Source: Tilletiaria anomala UBC 951 | Taxonomy: Eukaryota > Basidiomycota > Exobasidiomycetes > Georgefischeriales > Tilletiariaceae | DNA length: 64,000 nucleotides | Assembly: GCF_000711695.1 (NCBI RefSeq) | Contig: NW_013546932.1 | Span: forward strand, 1-64,000 | Direction of reading: 5' to 3' | Part shown: one piece after another, positions 11,183 through 49,101 of the stretch | Layout: the number at the start of each line of letters is the position of its first letter | Numbering within the stretch: the first letter of the stretch is position 1 | The notes under the pieces: generated by a model | Told to the model about the DNA's origin: nothing | Seen by the model: the letters and a program-made list of their open reading frames with translations, nothing else | Databases searched by the model: none | Translations under genes and position numbers: made by a program

Positions 11183-12994
11183 CTAGCTCTCCGTTTTCTT
11201 CGACGGTACTGGTGGGGGCCCCATTACCCGTGAAGCGGAAGCAGAGGCGGATGAGGCGGCACCGGAAGCAGAAGCGGACAAGCCCGGGATCTTGCTGCCT
11301 GTGCCCGCGTTGGGCAGCATGGAAAACGCGCCTTCTTTAAACCACTTTGCGTTGGCCTCGTCTACCTTGGTTTTGTTCCTAGATGGGTCGACCAGCTCAA
11401 TGCCCTGCACGGGTGTGAACGAGAGCGAGGATGCGGTGCCGGATGTTGCGCTGTCGAGCGCCGAAGCTGCGGACAGTGATGACGAAGTCGGCCCGCGCAG
11501 CGCCGCGAGACGATTGATATTTCGCTTGGACATCTTGGCTCGTGACTTGCTGTCCGCGACCTGCGCGCGTACGCGCCCCGTGGACGCGCTGTTGATCATA
11601 CCCATGCCGAGTATATCGTCGAACGCACCGGCCTCCTCCTCCGCTTTACCAAACTCGACGCGGTTCTGCATCTTGCGCAGCTCGGTCATGCCGTACTTTT
11701 CCTTCATCTTGCGCGCCGCGCGCCCGCCGCGGCGCTGCTTACGCCCGCCCTCCTGTGGCCGCGGGAGCGCCTTGATCATTTTGCTCGGAGGTGGCTCCTG
11801 CAGCTTCTCCAGCTTGCGCTCAAGCTCGTCGTACAATTTGCGCCCGTAACTGCCGTCGCGCATGCTCTTTGCGCCATCCATGCGCGCGGCCAGGACGGCT
11901 TTCGCGCTGACCATGCGCTGGGCCTGCCGCCGGTACTCCTCTGGCGTGCTCTCGACCAAATCGGACTGCGCGATGAAGCCGTTGTGCCGGCCGGAGAAGG
12001 CGGTGGAGAGGCCCGTGGCGGCTGTCGCGCTGCGCTTCGGCGCGCCGAGCAGGCCGATGTTGCTTGCAGGGATCTTTCCGAGCGCCGTCAGTCCGCCGGC
12101 AACACCGAGCAGCTTGGTGGCCACACGTGTGCCGACGACGGCAGAGAGGTTCGGAGCGATGAGTGTCATGCGCGACTCGACGTAGGTGAGGATCTTTCTG
12201 CGCGCTGCTTCGAGGTCAAAGACGACCTGGCATGCCTCCTCGACCCTCTCCCATGCTTTAGGCTCTAGCGGCCGGCCGTTTGTCGTGGATGCAGTCATGC
12301 TGATAACGACGATCGTTCCGTGCGGGAGGATGCCTTCCAGGTTGGCTTTGGACATGTCTTCGGTGTTGCCCAGAGCCTGTACAGCCTGCACGAACTCCCA
12401 CGGGTTGAGGATGAGCGTCTCCAGCTCCGGAAAGCGGGGTGCATAGTGATCGCGGATAAACTTGTGTGCCATCATGATCTCGTTGTCGAGTTCTACTGCA
12501 AGGTTGTTTGCCCGGACAATCAGGCTGTACTCGGGTGTCTCCTCCAGCACGCCTTCGAAATCTGGCGTGTCTAAGGTGCCGAATTGGTGGATCTGAGACA
12601 GAGTATCTTGTAGCCGGCTGCTCCGCAGCGCCTTGCAGACGGCGTGTACGCTATTGATGCTGGTCGGCCCTAGATCTAGCTGCTCGATCTCGTCGTGGTC
12701 CATCTCTTCCGCAGCTTTGACCGCATTCTTGGAGTTGGAGTTCGTCCCCTTGCCGCTTCCGTCGAGCACCCCGCCGTTCCCCTCACCATCCTCCTCATCC
12801 GTCCCTGCATCTCCCTCGAGTGCCTCGAGGTCATCCAGGTCTGCATCTTCCACCGCCTTGCGCTTGCAAAGTGCTATGGTGGAAGAAGAAGAGGAGGCAC
12901 TGGCCACTTCGCCGCTGGAGCCATCCACACCAGCATACTGCGCATCCTCCTCGGACCCGAGGTCTGCAAGTAGTTCGTCCGCCAGGTCTGCCAT
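11183..12994 (-). CDS. PRP31: U4/U6 snRNP splicing factor Prp31
   Basis: Prp31 binds the U4 snRNA 5' stem-loop with Snu13 and holds the U4/U6.U5 tri-snRNP together in the nucleus. It is a single exon of 603 residues, starting at the ATG at 12994 (MADLADELLADLG); an upstream GTG at 13042 is not the start. An acidic N-terminal region is followed by the NOSIC/coiled-coil region (residues about 100-240) and then the Nop domain with NLSAVVGTRVATKLLGVAGG and a PASNIGLLGA-type motif. The basic C-terminal part KQRRGGRAARKMKEKYG and the RKMQNRVEFG stretch are diagnostic for Prp31 and separate it from Nop56/58. The tail is Ser/Ala-rich. It lacks introns although its neighbours have many. Confidence 0.96.
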   Translation of the reverse strand: MADLADELLADLGSEEDAQYAGVDGSSGEVASASSSSSTIALCKRKAVEDADLDDLEALEGDAGTDEEDGEGNGGVLDGSGKGTNSNSKNAVKAAEEMDHDEIEQLDLGPTSINSVHAVCKALRSSRLQDTLSQIHQFGTLDTPDFEGVLEETPEYSLIVRANNLAVELDNEIMMAHKFIRDHYAPRFPELETLILNPWEFVQAVQALGNTEDMSKANLEGILPHGTIVVISMTASTTNGRPLEPKAWERVEEACQVVFDLEAARRKILTYVESRMTLIAPNLSAVVGTRVATKLLGVAGGLTALGKIPASNIGLLGAPKRSATAATGLSTAFSGRHNGFIAQSDLVESTPEEYRRQAQRMVSAKAVLAARMDGAKSMRDGSYGRKLYDELERKLEKLQEPPPSKMIKALPRPQEGGRKQRRGGRAARKMKEKYGMTELRKMQNRVEFGKAEEEAGAFDDILGMGMINSASTGRVRAQVADSKSRAKMSKRNINRLAALRGPTSSSLSAASALDSATSGTASSLSFTPVQGIELVDPSRNKTKVDEANAKWFKEGAFSMLPNAGTGSKIPGLSASASGAASSASASASRVMGPPPVPSKKTES

Positions 12995-13338
12995 ACTGCG
13001 AGCGCTCTTCCGGCGCCTGGCAGCGACGACAGGCAGCACCACCTAGCAGCGTTGTGCGAGATTAGGATGGAAACGTAATTGCGAAGTTGATGATGCAAAG
13101 TGCGAATACATGTAGGACTGGTCTTGGACTTTTGGAGAAATGAGCTTTGTGTGCTCAAAATCTCAAAAAGAGGCCTGTGCGCCGTTCCGCCCCAAAAGCT
13201 AGATTCAACAATGGCCCCATCACCACAAGCCGCCTGGTAGCTCTAGAAGGTTTGCTTTTGGATGATACGATGATACAGTGCGCACAACGTAGCGCCCATG
13301 CGCCGATTCCAGAACGTATTCTCCTGCCCTGCTTATGC

Positions 13339-14875: not shown

Positions 14876-15842
14876 TTTTATTATTATTATTCCCCCGCCT
14901 TGTACCCTGGTTTCCGAGCGAGCTTTATTATGCACGCAAGCGGGCAGGCAGGTGTCGGCTTCGAAGAAAGGTAGTAAAGCGATAGGAGCAATGGCTGCGG
15001 TAATGGTAGTGGTTGCGATAGTTGTAGTGGTCGTAGTAGTACATGCTTCAAAGTAGCAGGCCAGGTCGTGTGGCGGAGGCACTGGAACAGTTACACACGA
15101 TTCTTCTCATTCATTCTTTACTATTATTTCTTTTTTATTTCTTGGGGGTTGGGAATGTGTTGGCCCCAGCGAGAATCGTTGCACATTCTGGGGGGGAGAG
15201 ACACCGAGTTCAACGTGGGGCATATCTCAGATTCCTTGCTCCAGCAGCAGCAGAACATCGCCGCCCGGCCGCTGTCTGGAAAAGGATGAGAGAGGTGAGT
15301 CTGCACCTCTGTGCACCCCCGTCATCGGGAAGAGCAGATGCGGCGTGACGCGATGAACTACACAGGGGTCACCGCCTCTATTGCGCGAGGGAGCTCCCCG
15401 TTTGCTCCGACGCTACTCCACTCCATTGGATGGAGCAAGTCCAAGAGAAAGTCGGGCATTGCACTCGATGCTCGCTCATGTCTGGGCGGTCCGGTCCCTG
15501 CACATTTTGACCATCCTACCGCGCCTTTTCATGTTGTTTGCGATCTGATCCACCATGCTGTAGCCATGCAGCCAGCCAGCCTGTTCGTTCTGCTTCTGCT
15601 TTCGGTGTAACAAGGGGATGGGTGATCTCCGCCAAAGATGGAGACATGCAGTACAGAGAGCGCGCGGGACACATGCTGACGCGTTCACGCACCTTCCCAC
15701 GAACAGGCAGGCACGAGAGGAGGGGGAGCAAAGAACGGGGCTGACCAGCGGCCATGACTCTGCCAAGAGCGTGATTTAACCCCCTTTAACGCCTCGGCAC
15801 GGAAACAAGATCAAGGCGCCAGGCCGACGCGCCGCCGTCACC
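14876..15842. other. Divergent promoter region with short triplet runs
   Basis: This lies between BIO2 (minus) and the CHID1-like gene (plus). It contains a TTA triplet run at about 14878-14890, a degenerate GTA/GTG triplet tract at 15000-15050, and a T-rich tract at 15105-15145. I see no gene that I can support. Confidence 0.5.
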
Positions 15843-17468
15843 ATGCTGCTCAGCACCTTGGTGATCGCCGCCTGCGCATGTGCAGAAGCAACGCGCGCTG
15901 CAGCAGCCGCCCTCTCCTCCTCCACCGCATCCGTGTACCCGCTAGACCTGCACGGCAAGTTCCCATCCGCCGAGACGATCGCCGCGAATGCAAGCCAAGG
16001 CCTCGACGCGACAGCACTCGGCAGCACCAGCAGCAGCAACCTCATATCTAATCACACGCGCTTTCTCCCGCGTGACCGCACGGTCCTGGCGTACGTCACG
16101 CCGTGGAACCAGCCGCAGGGGCGCGAGAACACCGAGCACTACCGCGGCAAGCTTGATATTGTGGCGCCAGCCTGGTACACTGTGCACGTCGTGCCGGAAA
16201 CCGAGCAGGCGCAGCACGCCGCGTTCGAATCCACCGGCGCCACCGGCGGCGAGTATGACGTCCGCGGCGGCATCCCGAGCGATGAGGATCGCGCCTGGGT
16301 ACACAGGCTTCGCGCGCCGGCGCGTGCCTCCTCTCCCGTGCCCGGAGCAGCGGACGTCAAGCTGCCGCCGCTGCTCGTTACGCCGCGCTTCCAGCTCGAA
16401 GCATGGACCGAGCGCGACTTTCAGGCGTTGCGCAGCGATCCCCTGCGCTGGATCTCGCTGATCGGCCAGATCATGATGAAGATGAAGGACGGACCGTTCG
16501 ACGGTGCCGTCTTCGAGAGCGCTGCCAGCTGGGCTCTCCCTGAGTTCATCGAGCATCTCGGCAAGAGCTTCGCCTCCAACAATCTTACCCTCACCGTCGT
16601 CTATCCGCCGCTGCGCACCGACGGCGCAGCCGGCAATGCGAACGTCACTCGCACCGCCGAGCTGCTCGCGCAGGCCATCCACACCGCAGCGCAAAAGGTG
16701 CAGTACGTACAGATCATGACGTACGACCACACGGGCCCCACCGGCCGCATGCTCGACATGGACAAGCTTGGCCTCGCGGACGAGAACCCGCTTCGCCAGG
16801 ACGCGGAGGCGAGCCGTATGCGCACGTACGGCCCCAATCTGCCACTGGAGTTTCTCCAAAGCAACATCGACCTGTTGGCTAAGTTATCCCTCGATGATGG
16901 GCCGCTGCCAGGCGTCGGGTCCGGATGGAAAGATCTCAATGGAGCAGCAGCCGACAACTTTAACGCGTCTGCGCCGTCGTTTGCTTCCAAATTCCTCATG
17001 GGCGTGCCCTGCTACGGCTACAGCTACTCGCTTATCTTCCTCAACTCCAAGACCGCCGATGGGATCCCGCGCGTACCGACGGCGTCGCCGCCAAGAGCGC
17101 GCGCGCACCTGCCCGAGGCACAGGCCAAGGCGCGCGAGCAAGGTCTGCGCAAGGAGGCGGGCAAGTTTGCTCTGTTGCGCAGGGCCGGCAGCGCGCTCAA
17201 GCACGCCGACCTGCATGCGCTGATGCTTGCCTCGCGCCCGCTCATCTACCTCGACGACGACAGCGCCGAGATGCGCTTCGACTACATCAGCGCCAACGGC
17301 GATGACTCCAAGATCAACGACGGCCGCCGCGAGGGCATCTTCAATCGCGCCTTTATGCCCAGCGCCTACACGATGATCAGGCGCAGGGAGATCATCGAAC
17401 AGGGCGACGTTGGCGCCGCTCTGTGGGACATCGGCCAGGCGGGACCGTGGCTACTGCACGCGTTGTAA
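15843..17468 (+). CDS. Secreted GH18-family CHID1/SI-CLP-like protein
   Basis: A single exon of 541 residues. It opens with a short hydrophobic signal peptide (MLLSTLVIAACACAEATRA), then a glycosylation-prone linker and a TIM-barrel of the GH18 fold closest to chitinase domain-containing protein 1. The landmarks are VLAYVTPWN in strand 1, KLDIVAPAWYTV, ISLIGQIMMKMKDGPFDG, YVQIMTYDHTG and GVPCYGYSYS. The chitinase catalytic motif DxxDxDxE is replaced by FDGAVFES at about residues 216-224. CHID1-type proteins generally bind saccharides rather than hydrolyse chitin, so enzymatic activity is doubtful. An insertion rich in Ala and Arg (about residues 415-445) interrupts the late barrel and is probably a surface loop. 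The window has a very high-GC antisense open frame across this gene, which is only a shadow. Confidence 0.85.
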   Translation: MLLSTLVIAACACAEATRAAAAALSSSTASVYPLDLHGKFPSAETIAANASQGLDATALGSTSSSNLISNHTRFLPRDRTVLAYVTPWNQPQGRENTEHYRGKLDIVAPAWYTVHVVPETEQAQHAAFESTGATGGEYDVRGGIPSDEDRAWVHRLRAPARASSPVPGAADVKLPPLLVTPRFQLEAWTERDFQALRSDPLRWISLIGQIMMKMKDGPFDGAVFESAASWALPEFIEHLGKSFASNNLTLTVVYPPLRTDGAAGNANVTRTAELLAQAIHTAAQKVQYVQIMTYDHTGPTGRMLDMDKLGLADENPLRQDAEASRMRTYGPNLPLEFLQSNIDLLAKLSLDDGPLPGVGSGWKDLNGAAADNFNASAPSFASKFLMGVPCYGYSYSLIFLNSKTADGIPRVPTASPPRARAHLPEAQAKAREQGLRKEAGKFALLRRAGSALKHADLHALMLASRPLIYLDDDSAEMRFDYISANGDDSKINDGRREGIFNRAFMPSAYTMIRRREIIEQGDVGAALWDIGQAGPWLLHAL

Positions 17469-17895: not shown

Positions 17896-18240
17896 TTAGC
17901 AATTGCAGTTGGTCCCGCATTTGCAAGGGTTGCTGCGGTTGGAAAGAGTGAACGGTCAGACGGGGGAAAGAACTTTGTAGAACAAAAGGGCCGGTAGATG
18001 ACGCAGCACTCACCATGTGCACGAGCTCGGCTTGGTCGTGCCCTTGTCGCAAGTGCAGTCCTTGCACTCGCCGTTGCAGGAGCAGCTGCGTGTCGAGTCG
18101 TTCGCGCATGGGCACTAAGAGGAGTGCCGAATGAGACAGTGATCGGACGGCAAGGGAGAGAAGGAATCAGTCAGCGCAAGTGTGAAGCAGGGGTGGCGGT
18201 GCCCGCGATAAGGGAGCCAGGCGGCAACACTCACAGCCAT
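17896..18240 (-). CDS. Metallothionein, 47 residues, 13 cysteines
   Basis: A small metal-binding protein, expected to chelate Cu(I), Zn or Cd in the cytosol. Exons are 18240-18235, 18114-18014 and 17932-17896, all with GTGAGT donors. They total 144 nt and end in TAA. The product begins MACPCANDSTRSCSC and ends CKCGTNCNC. It contains 13 Cys in C-x-C and C-x2-C arrangements, no aromatic residues and no His, which is the composition of a metallothionein. The first exon holds only ATG-GCT, so the start codon is separated from all cysteines by a 120-nt intron. A TATATATA stretch lies upstream at about 18372-18379 on the minus strand, in a suitable place for a promoter. A single TTTGCGCTGT near 18545 fits the loose yeast Ace1 pattern, but one match is expected by chance. 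Codons and frame fit all three exons, and no other reading preserves the cysteine spacing. Confidence 0.88.
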
Positions 18241-18367
18241 TGTGATTTGATCTGCTCAAAGAATGTGCGGGTTTGCGATGGAGTGTTGTTTGACAAAGGA
18301 AAGGCGAGCTGCGGATCTGATGTTCGGCGAATGGGAGATGGGTTAGATGTCAAACGACATCAACCAT

Positions 18368-18380
18368 GCTCTATATATAC
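18368..18380 (-). promoter_or_regulatory. TATA box of the metallothionein gene
   Basis: The minus strand reads GGTATATATAGAG here, about 130 nt upstream of the metallothionein ATG. That spacing is compatible with a short 5' UTR. TATA-driven expression is common for inducible metallothioneins. Confidence 0.5.
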
Positions 18381-18896
18381 CATCGCTGGGGCGCGTGCGG
18401 TGCGAGGAGCGCTTACAGTGCACGTCGCCCATCGGGCCCCTGGCCCTGCGCCGGGACTTGTGGAGCCTGGCAAAGGAGCAGTGAGCGCATTTCGCCTGTA
18501 CCTTTTATGAGTCTCAGCGGTATGGGGCACTGCAGCACTCTGCATTTGCGCTGTTTCCAGGCAGCGGCTACAGGGCGGAAAGCGTAGATGGGGTGAGGGG
18601 CAAAAATCACGCAGCAAAAACCGCGCAATGTATAAGCCTTGCAATGAGTGCCAACCTTTTTGTGCCCAGCGTGGGCGTGGCCGACATGCATCCACAGCAC
18701 GAGTAAAGGGCACATTGGAGCATTCCAATAATGGGCGGTACTTGGAGCTTGCATGTCAACTTGTGCAGAAGGAATCCATTCGATTAGGTGGCAATTATAG
18801 TTTGGCACACCCCCGAGAAGGTGTTACTGGCTCTATGTATGTTCACGTCTGTGCTACAGACTCTATCGGTGTAAATGGAAATGTTCAAGAGAGGAT

Positions 18897-18899
18897 GCT

Positions 18900-18954
<55 letters not shown>

Positions 18955-38455: not shown

Positions 38456-39645
38456 ATGGCACGCCTCACCCTGCTCGCTTTCCTCCTCGCCGCCGCGCTG
38501 GCTGTCATGTCAGGCATGGCTGAGAACAGCACGATCCTGAACGAAGTCCTCGACCATGCTCCGGGCGCAAATGACGATGACGGCAACCTGATCCGTTTCA
38601 TCAACGGCGGCGCAGACCCTGACGATGATGATATCGAGGATGAGGGACTGGCCCGTGAGCAGTAGCCGAGGAATCGAGGTGTAGCGCGGCCTGGCAGACA
38701 GCTAACCATGTGACTTGCGTCTCGCTCTTTCGCATGCGTCTGCGGACCACAGGTCGCAGGTTCCACGCTCGACACGCAAAGAAGCACAAGTCAAAGAAAG
38801 TGGGCGTTCACAAGTATCAGCCCGGCAAGAAGGTGAGTGGCCGATATGTGCAGGGCACATCTTCCGTGCGGGGCTGGGCATGTGTGTGCTGACAGTCCCT
38901 GCAATGCGCGCAGCTCTGGGTCAGAGACTGCCAGATCACCTGGTACGCCTCAAACGACCTCAAGAACCCCCAGTGCGGTAACGGGAAGTGGAACCCCCAT
39001 AACGGTGTGAGTACCTGCACCTTTTCTACATTTCTCTCTTTCCATCCTCTGGTCTTGCAGGAGTACTGATGACGAATCCGTGCCTCTTCATCGCGCGCGC
39101 CCGCTCTTGCAGAACCACATTGGCGCAGTCATGGCTGGATGGGATGGAGGGCCCAAATGCGGCGAGTTCATTGACCTTTGCCGCGGAAACGCCTGCGTAT
39201 CCGTTCGTATTGTCGACAAGTGTGCTGGCTGCGGGAAGAACCACGGTGAGTGTCGAGACTGCCGCCAAGTATACCCTTGCTCGCTTCGATAGTGGCTGAC
39301 AAGGTCTGTTGCCTTTGCTGGGGTTCTCATTTTCTCCCCCAGTCGACTTGACGAAGTCTGCATTCAAGGTGCGTTCAATTGGGACAACCCTTTGCGAACA
39401 TGGCGTGCACAGTTGACCCTCTTACTTTTGATCTTGCAGCGCCTTTCCCCATCTGGTACCTTGAAGGAGGGCAGGATCCACGGCTTGAAGATGTTCCACA
39501 ACAGCAAGCCGAACCCATGGAATCTCCGTGAGTGCCCTTGGTTTCACGCGCACTTTGCTCGTATCCTGCAGGGAACTGATCTTGCTTTCGTCCCTGCATG
39601 TGTATTACCGCAGAGCTCTTCGGTCCATACAACCTCAAGGGCTAA
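38456..39645 (+). CDS. Secreted double-psi beta-barrel (RlpA-like) protein
   Basis: A secreted protein of the RlpA-like/barwin-type double-psi beta-barrel family, which in fungi includes loosenins and the so-called riboflavin aldehyde-forming enzymes. Exons are 38456-38654, 38753-38832, 38914-39006, 39113-39245, 39343-39368 (26 nt), 39440-39527 and 39614-39645, giving 216 residues. A signal peptide spans residues 1-22 (LLAFLLAAALAVMSGMA). An acidic segment follows (DPDDDDIEDEG), then a basic stretch ARHAKKHKSKK that may be a processing site. The barrel domain runs from about residue 95: CQITWYASNDL, HIGAVMAGWDGGPKCGEF, CVSVRIVDKCAGCGKNHVDL, LTKSAFKRLS. It ends LFGPYNLKG. Cysteines pair as expected, and the VDLT Asp is the usual conserved acid of the fold. 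A long C/T-rich tract precedes the ATG, as in strongly expressed fungal genes. Confidence 0.9.
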
Positions 39646-45570: not shown

Positions 45571-46897
45571 CTGGCGAACAAGTGGTCAACGTGATGTTGG
45601 TTGTGCGCGACTCGAAAGCGGAGAAGACAAGGATGGAGTCTGGGACAGTAGGGCGCAGTGCCGTTTCGCAGCCATACCACTCTAGCGTCAGGCAGCGGCA
45701 GCTGTGTGGCCTCTAAGCGCGACGCGTCGCGTCCCGACTTCCGCGTCTCGCGCACTGGCTCGTGGCCAGCGCCGACTGAGGATGCGGCTGCGCACGGTGC
45801 ACGTCCGGCGGGACGCATTGGGCGAGTGTGCACTATGTTTGTTCTGCGCAGAACACTCTCTCCCCTTTAGGGTTTGTTTTGACTGGGGTGCACTATGGGC
45901 ACCTAGAGAGTGTCCCTGGATGGGGAATCGCGCGCGCGTGTCTGTGAAACGGGAAAAACACACATCTCTTGTGTGCTGCGCTGGGCGGTGCATGGCAAAC
46001 ACGAGTCCAACACGACTGTCCTTGTGCAATAACCCTGGCTGTGCGAGTGTGACCCACCCGTAGTTTGCCGCTGTTTTGCTGCGGGTGCTAGCGAACCCTT
46101 TCTTCTCGTGGTTGCCCGCGCCCACCATCCCACCTTCCTGGCTGGCTGGCTGGCTGGCTGTTGTTGCTCTCTCTCGCAACCCACGTTCGATAGTGTCCCA
46201 GGTCAGGCATCGTCCTCTTCCTCGTCTGCGTACTCATTCGCTCGACTGTTCGACCTTCCATTCGTTCATTGACAGAGGCTCATTTCGGTGTCGCACTTCA
46301 ACGCCTGCACCCAACCACCCCCCGTACCGCCCTCGCTCCACATACCCCCTCCACGGTGCGTAACCGTCGTGGCACCCGGCCCATCTTTGCGCCGCGCTGC
46401 CCTATCACGCCGTGCTCAGGCGCAAAGTGCCGCAGCGGCCTTCGCCCAGCGCGGAGAGAACCCGCATAGGACAAGGCTGGGAGCCTGCTCGTACGGAGCG
46501 ATGGGCAGGACACAAGGTCGAGCAGTGCAAGTGTGCTGCTGGGGACCGCTCGCAGGGACTACAGTGCTTCATGCTCTTGTTGGAATCAGAAGGATCGCCG
46601 CTGAGCGCCACCCTGAAGCTCTTTTTGTCTCACTCGAGCGGCTCTGACGCGTTCGAAGGGGTCAAAGTGCGATCTGCAGCACCGTCGAACGAGCATCCGG
46701 CCAGGCTCGAATCACCTCTTCGCATCTGTCACCAGATGTTCTTGCTGCGGACACATTGCGTGCTGTGGTCCATTGCAATTTTCCTTTGTCTCGTTGCTCG
46801 CACATTGGTCCCCGCACACGAGCGTGAGGCGAAACAGGGCGTGCTGATCCTCTTCGTATCTTGAACGCTGTCAGATTCCTATTGACGATTAGCCAAT
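45571..46897. other. Intergenic upstream of beta-tubulin
   Basis: About 1.3 kb with the beta-tubulin promoter. A (GGCT)5 tetranucleotide repeat lies at 46138-46160, and C/T-rich sequence at 46200-46350. Several open frames are present, but none has a recognisable domain. Confidence 0.5.
46138..46160. repeat. (GGCT)n microsatellite
   Basis: Five perfect GGCT units flanked by CTTCCT and GTTGTTG. It lies in the intergenic region upstream of beta-tubulin. Confidence 0.9.
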
Positions 46898-48895
46898 ATG
46901 AGAGAAATCGGTACGTGCTCTTGGGCCGACATGGTGGTGACATGATCATGGCAGCCCTGATTGACTCTGTTTGGAATTTGCCAAATGCAGTTCACCTTCA
47001 GACCGGTCAATGCGGTAACCAAGTCGGTGAGTACTTTCTGCCGCCCGCGTCCGCTTGCAGCTTCCAGTTCTAATCTCGTCATCTGCATGGTTACCGCAGG
47101 TGCCAAATTCTGGGAGGTCCTCTCCGACGAGCACGGCATTGACGGCGCTGGTGCGTACCAAGGTACTTCGGACCTGCAGCTCGAGCGTATCAACGTCTAC
47201 TAGTGAGTGTCTCCAGCGCAGTGAGCACGAGCATCTCCCCCTTGATTGCTTAATTGCCCTCTCACTGACACTCGCTCGCAGCAATGAGGCCTCCAACGCC
47301 AAATACGTCCCCCGTGCTGTCCTTATCGACCTCGAGCCGGGCACGATGGACTCTGTCCGTTCCGGCCCGATGGGTGGCCTCTTCCGCCCGGATAACTTTG
47401 TCTTTGGTCAATCTGGTGCTGGTAACAACTGGGCCAAGGGCCACTACACGGAGGGTGAGTTGACTGGCAGCCAGTGTATGCAGATGTTAGGCGACTGACG
47501 TTGGTCACTTGCACCTCGGGCATCCACGCCAGGCGCTGAGCTCGTTGACTCGGTTCTCGATGTTGTGCGCAAGGAGGCCGAGGGCTGCGACATGCTGCAG
47601 GGATTCCAGATCACCCACTCGCTCGGTGGTGGTACGGGTGCCGGTATGGGTACGCTGCTCATCTCCAAGATCCGGGAAGAGTTCCCGGACCGCATGATGG
47701 CCACCTTCTCGGTCATGCCCTCGCCCAAGGTCTCGGACACAGTTGTCGAGCCATACAACGCCACGCTCTCCGTCCACCAGCTGGTCGAGAACTCGGACGA
47801 GACGTTCTGCATTGACAACGAGGCGCTCTACGAGATCTGCTTCCGCACTCTTAAACTCCCGTCACGTGAGTGCTTCTCTAGCGCACATGCCTGTGCTGCC
47901 TTCGGTGTCTTGCGGCAGGAAACCCTGTGTTGACGTGAACCTCGCCCCCGCGCGCCCCTTGCCATCGACAGCCAAGTACGGTGACCTTAACCACCTTGTC
48001 TCTCTCGTCATGAGTGGTATTACCACATGTCTCCGTTTCCCCGGTCAGCTCAACTCTGATCTGCGCAAGCTCGCGGTCAACATGGTCCGTGAGTATCCCC
48101 GGCGCATGCAGCTTTCCATGCTTTATACCCGCCCTCCACTGACGCCCAAGGGGTGATCTCCTCCAGCGTTCCCACGTTTGCACTTCTTCATGGTCGGCTT
48201 TGCTCCGCTCACCGCAAGGGGCAGCCAGCAATACCGCGCAGTCAGCGTCCCTGAGCTGTACGTTGCCGAGTGCTTGCTCCGACGTCGAACTACATTTACA
48301 CCTTGCTGATCCTCTCTTCCCCCATGGCGGAATGCCTTAATAGGACCCAGCAAATGTTCGAGTCGAAGAACATGATGGCCGCCGCTGACCCACGCCATGG
48401 CCGCTACTTGACTGTCGCCGCGTACTTCCGCGGTAAGGTGTCAATGAAGGAGGTCGAGGACCAGATGCAAGCGACGCAGGCCAAGAACGCGGCCTACTTC
48501 GTTGAGTGGATCCCTAACAACGTCCAGACAGCCCACTGTGACATTGCCCCGCGCGGCATGAAGATGGCCGTTACGTTCATCGGCAACTCGACCGCCATCC
48601 AGGAGCTGTTCAAGCGTGTTTCGGAGCAGTTCTCGGCCATGTTCAGGAGGAAGGCGTTCTTGCACTGGTACACCGGCGAGGGCATGGACGAACTCGAGTT
48701 CACCGAGGCAGAGTCCAACATGCAGGACCTCGTCAGCGAATACCAACAGGTGCGTCGTGCGCTCTCATATCTTTGGTCGCTCGCTGACATATTGCCCGCC
48801 CTTACATGCCCTCATCTGCTCAGTATGCGGAGGCTGGTATCGACGACGAGGAGGATGGCCTTTACGAGGAGGAAGTCCCGGCCGAGGAGGAGTAA
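46898..48895 (+). CDS. TUB2: Beta-tubulin
   Basis: The beta subunit of the alpha/beta-tubulin dimer. Nine exons are 46898-46910 (13 nt), 46991-47026, 47100-47202, 47282-47454, 47533-47865, 47972-48088, 48167-48257, 48344-48749 and 48824-48895. They total 447 residues, the normal length. [15 protein letters not shown] starts the protein and carries the MREI autoregulation tetrapeptide. The GTP-binding loop [12 protein letters not shown] is at 140-151. The acidic tail ends EEEVPAEEE. Residues linked to benzimidazole sensitivity are in their sensitive form: His6, Tyr50, Phe167, Glu198 and Phe200. Met170 replaces the common Val. The first four exons are short, a fungal pattern with introns clustered at the 5' end. 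Every intron is GT-AG, 73-106 nt apart from the 80-nt first one. Confidence 0.98.
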
Positions 48896-49101
48896 TTTTT
48901 TCAACAAAGATTTCGCTTCGAGGAGGCCCAGCACGTAGTGGTGGAAGAAAAGGCGCCTGTAAACCTTTGAGATCGCTCCTTTAACATGCAACCTTTCTTC
49001 ACGCTCAGAATGTAGGCATTTGGGCCAAATTTCAGCGATGCATAGACGGCTCAATTGGGCTACGACGATGCAGCACGAAAATGTTTGTGCAGACATTACA
49101 A

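What the first reader, a model, noticed from the sequence alone, without database searches (positions are those of the whole stretch)
17896..18240. A 47-residue metallothionein split by two introns, with the start codon on its own exon
Seen directly: three tiny exons (6, 101 and 37 nt) with GTGAGT donors join into a 13-cysteine protein without aromatic residues. It is too small for usual gene finding and easy to miss. The Cys pattern (two C-x-C-rich halves separated by TTKPSS) may define a lineage-specific type. Metal preference is unknown.
Basis: partly seen in the sequence, partly recalled or inferred. Interest (0 to 1): 0.75.

Follow-up and report, generated by a model that had tools for sequence, protein, structure and literature searches.

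The report
Small two-intron fungal metallothionein gene
A fungus of the smut-fungus group carries a tiny, intron-split gene for a 47-residue, cysteine-packed protein, most likely a copper and cadmium buffer; the gene looks real, but it is a kind of protein already well known from fungi.

Summary
On the minus strand, coding pieces 18240-18235, 18114-18014 and 17932-17896 join across GTGAGT...TAG and GTGAGT...CAG introns (120 and 81 nt) into MACPCANDSTRSCSCNGECKDCTCDKGTTKPSSCTCNPCKCGTNCNC: 47 aa, 13 Cys, six C-x-C, no His, no aromatics. None of 1000 shuffled windows gave a spliced mini-ORF above 10 Cys. Donors match the window's beta-tubulin introns; TATATATA lies 132-139 bp upstream. By its Prp31 protein the fungus belongs with Ustilaginomycotina. 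The genome encodes at least one copper-fist factor; a protein search found only this metallothionein-like locus.

Best reading: an ordinary cytosolic metallothionein with two Cys clusters (7 and 6) that buffers Cu(I) and Cd(II), probably copper-induced. Splicing, metal and induction are inferred; there were no RNA or binding data. Its Cys spacing fits none of five fungal patterns tested, Pfam gave nothing, and no homologue was found. Fungal metallothioneins vary widely and small introns are known in them, so: new member of a known kind. "Start codon on its own exon" holds only for coding sequence.

The parts
18235..18240 (-). Coding part of exon 1, ATG GCT (Met-Ala); A at -3 and G at +4
18115..18234 (-). 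Intron 1, phase 0, 120 nt, GTGAGT...CTCTTAG; CTGAC at -60, CTCAT at -21
   Evidence: donor rank 22 of 3428 GT sites
18014..18114 (-). Exon 2, 101 nt: first Cys cluster (7 Cys), linker, Cys34 and two bases of the Cys36 codon
17933..18013 (-). Intron 2, phase 2 (splits the Cys36 codon), 81 nt, GTGAGT...CGCAG; CTGAC at -27
   Evidence: donor rank 13 of 3428
17896..17932 (-). Coding part of exon 3, 37 nt with stop TAA: rest of the second Cys cluster
18372..18379 (-). TATATATA, likely TATA box, 132-139 bp upstream of the ATG
   Evidence: sequence; 2 TATAWAW hits (one site, both strands) against 0.38 expected in 800 bp
18514..18523 (-). ATACCGCTGA, ACE1-like site, weak evidence. Others at 18694-18703 (-) and 18545-18554 (+); 3 found, 0.85 expected; consensus recalled

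Best explanation
A functional nuclear gene for a small cytosolic metallothionein. Transcription probably starts below the TATA box at 18379-18372; two small introns are removed; the 47-residue product folds only around metal, binding Cu(I) (and Cd/Zn) through 13 cysteine thiolates in two clusters, 7 Cys (residues 3-24) and 6 Cys (34-47), joined by the linker DKGTTKPSS. It lowers free copper and cadmium in the cell. A copper-fist factor of the same genome, of Cuf1/Ace1 kind, is the likely copper sensor that induces it. Shown: the open frame, splice signals, Cys content, and a copper-fist gene in the genome. Inferred: transcription, splicing in vivo, metal binding, copper preference, induction and who does it.
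For: Frame and splice sites. 0 of 1000 shuffles exceed 10 Cys against 13 observed. Both donors are GTGAGT, as in 5 of 8 introns of the window's beta-tubulin gene (my aligner gave GTGAGT/GTAAGT donors a bonus of 4 points); those introns are 73-106 nt, with CTRAY in 7 of 8. With a donor matrix from those 8 introns the two donors rank 13 and 22 of 3428 minus-strand GT sites; the third best in the locus ranks 1030. The acceptor at 18115 completes an in-frame TAG that closes the Cys frame upstream, so that frame must be entered by splicing; of 33 ATG/donor pairs within 700 nt that join there in phase 0, only ATG18240 has a GTGAGT or GTAAGT donor. GC3 is 0.81 (0.76, 25 of 33, without Cys and Met codons), against 0.64-0.81 in three gene frames of the window. 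Copper-fist domain on contig C61, 68.4 bits over a cut-off of 25, with further Cys-rich motifs in its frame. [quoted passage not shown]
Against: No transcript, protein or binding data. No homologue, so no conservation test. Intron 1 is longer than all 8 tubulin introns and its CTRAY lies at -60 and -56, outside their range of -17 to -40; only a weaker CTCAT lies at -21. Copper-type sites upstream are few: ACE1 3 against 0.85 expected, AMT1 3 against 1.7 (the same three), Cuf1 1 against 0.47, MRE 1 against 1.75, TTTGCTC 0. Real DNA of the genome holds spliced mini-ORFs with up to 11 Cys. Composition (5 Asn, 4 Lys) does not settle Cu against Zn/Cd.
Confidence: 0.8

Rival explanations
1. It is a metallothionein, but mainly a Cd/Zn-thionein or a constitutive metal store rather than a copper-induced Cu-thionein.
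For: Two-cluster layout; 4 Lys; no clear copper element upstream. All 16 Agaricomycete metallothioneins of Table 1 in PMC12508003 protect yeast against Cd as well as Cu, and AcMT2 binds Cd in the fruit body and is expressed without metal.
Against: All but one of the 13 Cys in C-x-C, no His and few Lys is usual for fungal Cu-thioneins (recalled knowledge, not tested).
Confidence: 0.25
2. Chance arrangement or dead gene: Cys-rich pieces that are not spliced or translated.
For: No homologue and no expression data; real DNA of the genome holds spliced mini-ORFs with up to 11 Cys, one of them with six C-x-C in a CR repeat.
Against: 0 of 1000 shuffles above 10 Cys; six C-x-C without repeat; intact frame; two strong donors; TATA box; GC3 as in gene frames.
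Confidence: 0.06
3. The real product is antisense: the 170-codon ATG-started ORF on the plus strand, 17998-18510.
For: It is open and begins with ATG.
Against: GC3 0.474 against 0.635-0.812 in three gene frames; no Pfam match at E<=1; it runs across both the intron 1 region and the TATA box of the opposite gene; 69 stop-to-stop frames of 150 or more codons occur in the window.
Confidence: 0.02

Closest known systems
Agaricomycete metallothioneins of the heptaCys type (AcMT1/2, HcMT, LbMT, PiMT1; PMC12508003)
   Same: Basidiomycete, 32-59 aa, C-x-C rich, small introns (3 exons in AcMT2, 4 in AcMT1); the C-terminal run CxC-x2-CxC-x3-CxC resembles CxC-x2,3-CxC-x4-CxC.
   Different: The motif C-x4-C-x-C-x2,3-C-x-C-x4-C-x-C is not met; 13 Cys against 10 and 7 in AcMT1 and AcMT2.
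Neurospora and Agaricus bisporus 25-residue Cu-thioneins (sequences recalled)
   Same: C-x-C rich, no aromatics; the first cluster (spacing 1,7,1,3,2,1) is near 1,5,1,3,1,2.
   Different: Spacing not met; about half the length and one cluster. The Neurospora query finds nothing in this genome (no positive control).
Schizosaccharomyces pombe Zym1 (PF12749)
   Same: 50 aa, several C-x-C; 30% identity in a four-row alignment.
   Different: Zym1 matches PF12749 at 44.2 bits; the window protein has no Pfam match at E<=10.
Tremella TmMT and Cryptococcus CMT repeat metallothioneins (PMC4755600)
   Same: Basidiomycete, C-x-C modules; TmMT is intron-split.
   Different: TmMT has 257 aa, 57 Cys and 10 exons; the unit CXCX3CSCPPGXCXCAXCP is absent here.

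Membership tests
Metallothionein (general sense) | Short, Cys-rich, C-x-C motifs, few or no aromatics | tested here: met
   47 aa, 13 Cys, six C-x-C, no F/W/Y/H
Metallothionein (general sense) | Binds metal through Cys thiolates | not testable with these tools
   Needs recombinant protein
Metallothionein (general sense) | Expressed, spliced mRNA | not testable with these tools
   No RNA data; splice signals only
Agaricomycete heptaCys metallothioneins | C-x4-C-x-C-x2,3-C-x-C-x4-C-x-C (text of PMC12508003), also with x5 as in AcMT1 | tested here: not met
   Pattern test, forward and reversed
TmMT/CnMT repeat metallothioneins | CXCX3CSCPPGXCXCAXCP unit (PMC4755600), or the 7-Cys spacing I derived from it | tested here: not met
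Neurospora-type Cu-thionein | CxCx5CxCx3CxCx2C (from a recalled sequence) | tested here: not met
PF12749 Metallothio_Euk (Zym1) | Pfam profile over 22 bits | tested here: not met
   0 families at E<=10; positive control Zym1 44.2 bits

The most novel reading that the evidence does not exclude
The gene stands for a separate Ustilaginomycotina type of two-cluster (7+6 Cys) metallothionein, largely missing from annotation because its coding pieces are so short. Retention of intron 2 would also yield a 36-residue, 8-Cys short form, so splicing could set binding capacity.
Probability: 0.2. Interest if true: 0.5.

Novelty: new member of a known kind. Interest (0 to 1): 0.3.

Why it matters
PMC4410428 lists phytochelatin synthase as absent from the Ustilaginomycotina (8 in its table), says it is unclear what took its place where it was lost, and mentions metallothioneins as a possibility (passages). 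In this genome, too, the phytochelatin synthase family gave no match, though without a working control. My paper searches showed no title or abstract start on a metallothionein of that group (2 of 2 papers listed; 15 of 29; 15 of 40, none of which contains the word metallothionein), and the passages I read name none; most of these papers I did not open. An intron-split 47-residue metallothionein, hard for gene finders to see, would be one plain answer and gives a query for finding others.

Tried and rejected
Homologues: no protein of the 5.8-billion set shares three 5-residue words with the 47-aa protein. A profile with three recalled fungal metallothioneins returned 1 protein of 10 candidates, Zym1, itself one of the rows put in. 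The Prp31 control shows that the set does hold relatives of this genome, the best-scoring ones other than itself at 67% identity. So the blank means that no close annotated relative was found, not that none exists.

Paralogues: the protein found only its own exon 2 (1 candidate); the Neurospora query found nothing, nor did PF12749, but neither had a positive control that rang. Phytochelatin synthase: no match, and again the control did not ring.

Internal duplication of the two halves: not supported. The alignment score of 43 was reached by 355 of 2000 full shuffles and by 1352 of 2000 shuffles that kept the Cys in place.

Copper elements upstream: 3 ACE1-like sites against 0.85 expected; suggestive only. 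The bacterial-type promoter/terminator scan is not meaningful in a fungus and was not used. Rfam gave no match in the window at gathering scores; NCBIfam none (a bacterial and archaeal library); PDB sequences none at E<=10.

Structure prediction and fold search were not run: a metal-free metallothionein is expected to have no fold to compare.

Full report
WHAT IS THERE. On the minus strand the coding pieces 18240-18235, 18114-18014 and 17932-17896 join into MACPCANDSTRSCSCNGECKDCTCDKGTTKPSSCTCNPCKCGTNCNC, 47 residues and 4.85 kDa. The 13 Cys lie at 3, 5, 13, 15, 19, 22, 24, 34, 36, 39, 41, 45 and 47, with gaps 1,7,1,3,2,1,9,1,2,1,3,1. There are six C-x-C, no aromatics and no His. All 13 Cys codons are TGC; in three other gene frames of the window TGC is also preferred (7 TGC, 2 TGT).

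IS IT A GENE. The introns are 120 and 81 nt and open with GTGAGT. Spliced alignment of a recalled beta-tubulin to 46700-49100 gave 8 introns of 73-106 nt, 5 of 8 with GTGAGT, and 7 of 8 with CTRAY at -17 to -40 (the aligner favoured GTGAGT/GTAAGT by 4 points). With a donor matrix from those 8, the two donors rank 13 and 22 of 3428 GT sites on the minus strand, and the next best in the locus ranks 1030. Intron 2 has CTGAC at -27. Intron 1 is less typical: it is longer than all 8, with CTGAC at -60, CTGAT at -56 and only CTCAT at -21. The exon 2 frame is closed just upstream by the TAG of the acceptor itself, so it needs a start from another exon; of the 33 ATG/donor pairs within 700 nt that join there in phase 0, only ATG18240 has a GTGAGT or GTAAGT donor. 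The start context has A at -3 and G at +4. TATATATA lies at 18379-18372. GC3 of the coding sequence is 0.81, or 25 of 33 (0.76) without Cys and Met codons; three gene frames of the window have 0.635-0.812, the antisense ORF 0.474.

CHANCE. With fixed splice rules the window holds one model above 9 Cys. 1000 dinucleotide shuffles gave none above 10 (12 with 10, 61 with 9, 927 with none at 9 or more). Twenty real 10-kb stretches (193.5 kb unique, two of them overlapping) gave models of 9 or more Cys in 4 of 20, with 11 Cys in two: L010, a CR-repeat product that also counts six C-x-C, and L016, with CCCC and two Trp. Real DNA is thus less clean than shuffled DNA, but nothing in it reached 13 Cys or lacked aromatics at 11.

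ORGANISM AND SETTING. The window is the first 64 kb of a 77.5-kb contig of an 18.4-Mb assembly in 202 contigs. The window's Prp31 protein (689 hits at E<=1e-30, 120 listed) has its best-scoring named relatives in Violaceomyces, Exobasidium, Thecaphora, Tilletia, Pseudozyma and Acaromyces, which I know as Ustilaginomycotina; the two best records other than itself, at 67%, are unnamed. This placing rests on one protein and no tree. Downstream and convergent is a GH18-like frame (15780-17468, 21 bits, under the Pfam cut-off of 29.6). Upstream is a (TGA)n repeat at 18911-18954.

HOW IT LIKELY WORKS. Thiolate clusters of 7 and 6 Cys bind Cu(I) or Cd(II) and lower the free metal (inferred). The genome holds at least one copper-fist protein (contig C61, 68.4 bits; the 14 control genomes of that search did not ring, the match itself is over the curated cut-off), with additional Cys-rich motifs in the same 541-codon frame. 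In the basidiomycete C. neoformans, high copper induces CMT1 and CMT2, the title of the paper gives a Cys-rich domain of Cuf1 as required for high-copper sensing, and a CMT1-promoter reporter serves as read-out of Cuf1 (PMC13343922, passages only). Whether the copper-fist protein here acts on this promoter is unknown; the upstream sites, scored with recalled consensus sequences, are at best suggestive.

PLACE AMONG KNOWN KINDS. In kind it is a fungal metallothionein. Five spacing patterns failed, forward and reversed: two quoted from papers I read, one variant from the same text, one my own generalisation, one recalled. Pfam and NCBIfam gave nothing. Pfam is also silent on the recalled 25-residue Neurospora and Agaricus proteins, so silence there means little, but Zym1 does ring. 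Agaricomycete metallothioneins are of similar size and the two AcMT genes are split by small introns (PMC12508003). The C-terminal run of three C-x-C pairs resembles their motif but with x3 instead of x4.

LIMITS. No RNA, no binding data, no orthologue. No DNA-level search of other fungal genomes was possible. The claim of a lineage-specific type is open. What I saw of papers: PMC12508003, abstract, Results part 1 of 2, Discussion part 1 of 2, and passages; PMC4755600, abstract and one section; PMC4410428, PMC8003315, PMC9036806 and PMC13343922, passages only.

Noticed in passing
G000 contig C61, 54604-54720 (-), locus L002: A copper-fist transcription factor frame (541 codons) with further Cys-rich motifs (such as CNCKGGCRCRGC), possibly the Cuf1/Ace1-type copper regulator of this fungus.
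   Followed up: partly
window 18911-18954: Perfect (TGA)n microsatellite, 14.7 copies, about 0.67-0.71 kb upstream of the metallothionein start.
   Followed up: no
window 15780-17468 (+): GH18-like open frame convergent with the metallothionein gene; Pfam score 21 bits, under the 29.6 cut-off, so perhaps a divergent member.
   Followed up: no
window 11183-13042 (-), Prp31 search: Among the Prp31 hits are records named Cichorium endivia (P0040, 54% identity) and Adiantum nelumboides (P0069, 48%), both plants, ranked among fungal hits; probably fungal contamination of plant assemblies.
   Followed up: no
window 39179-39280 (+): Short Cys-rich frame CRGNACVSVRIVDKCAGCGKNHGECRDC, no Pfam match on its own; reminiscent (recalled) of an expansin/RlpA-like exon.
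   Followed up: partly
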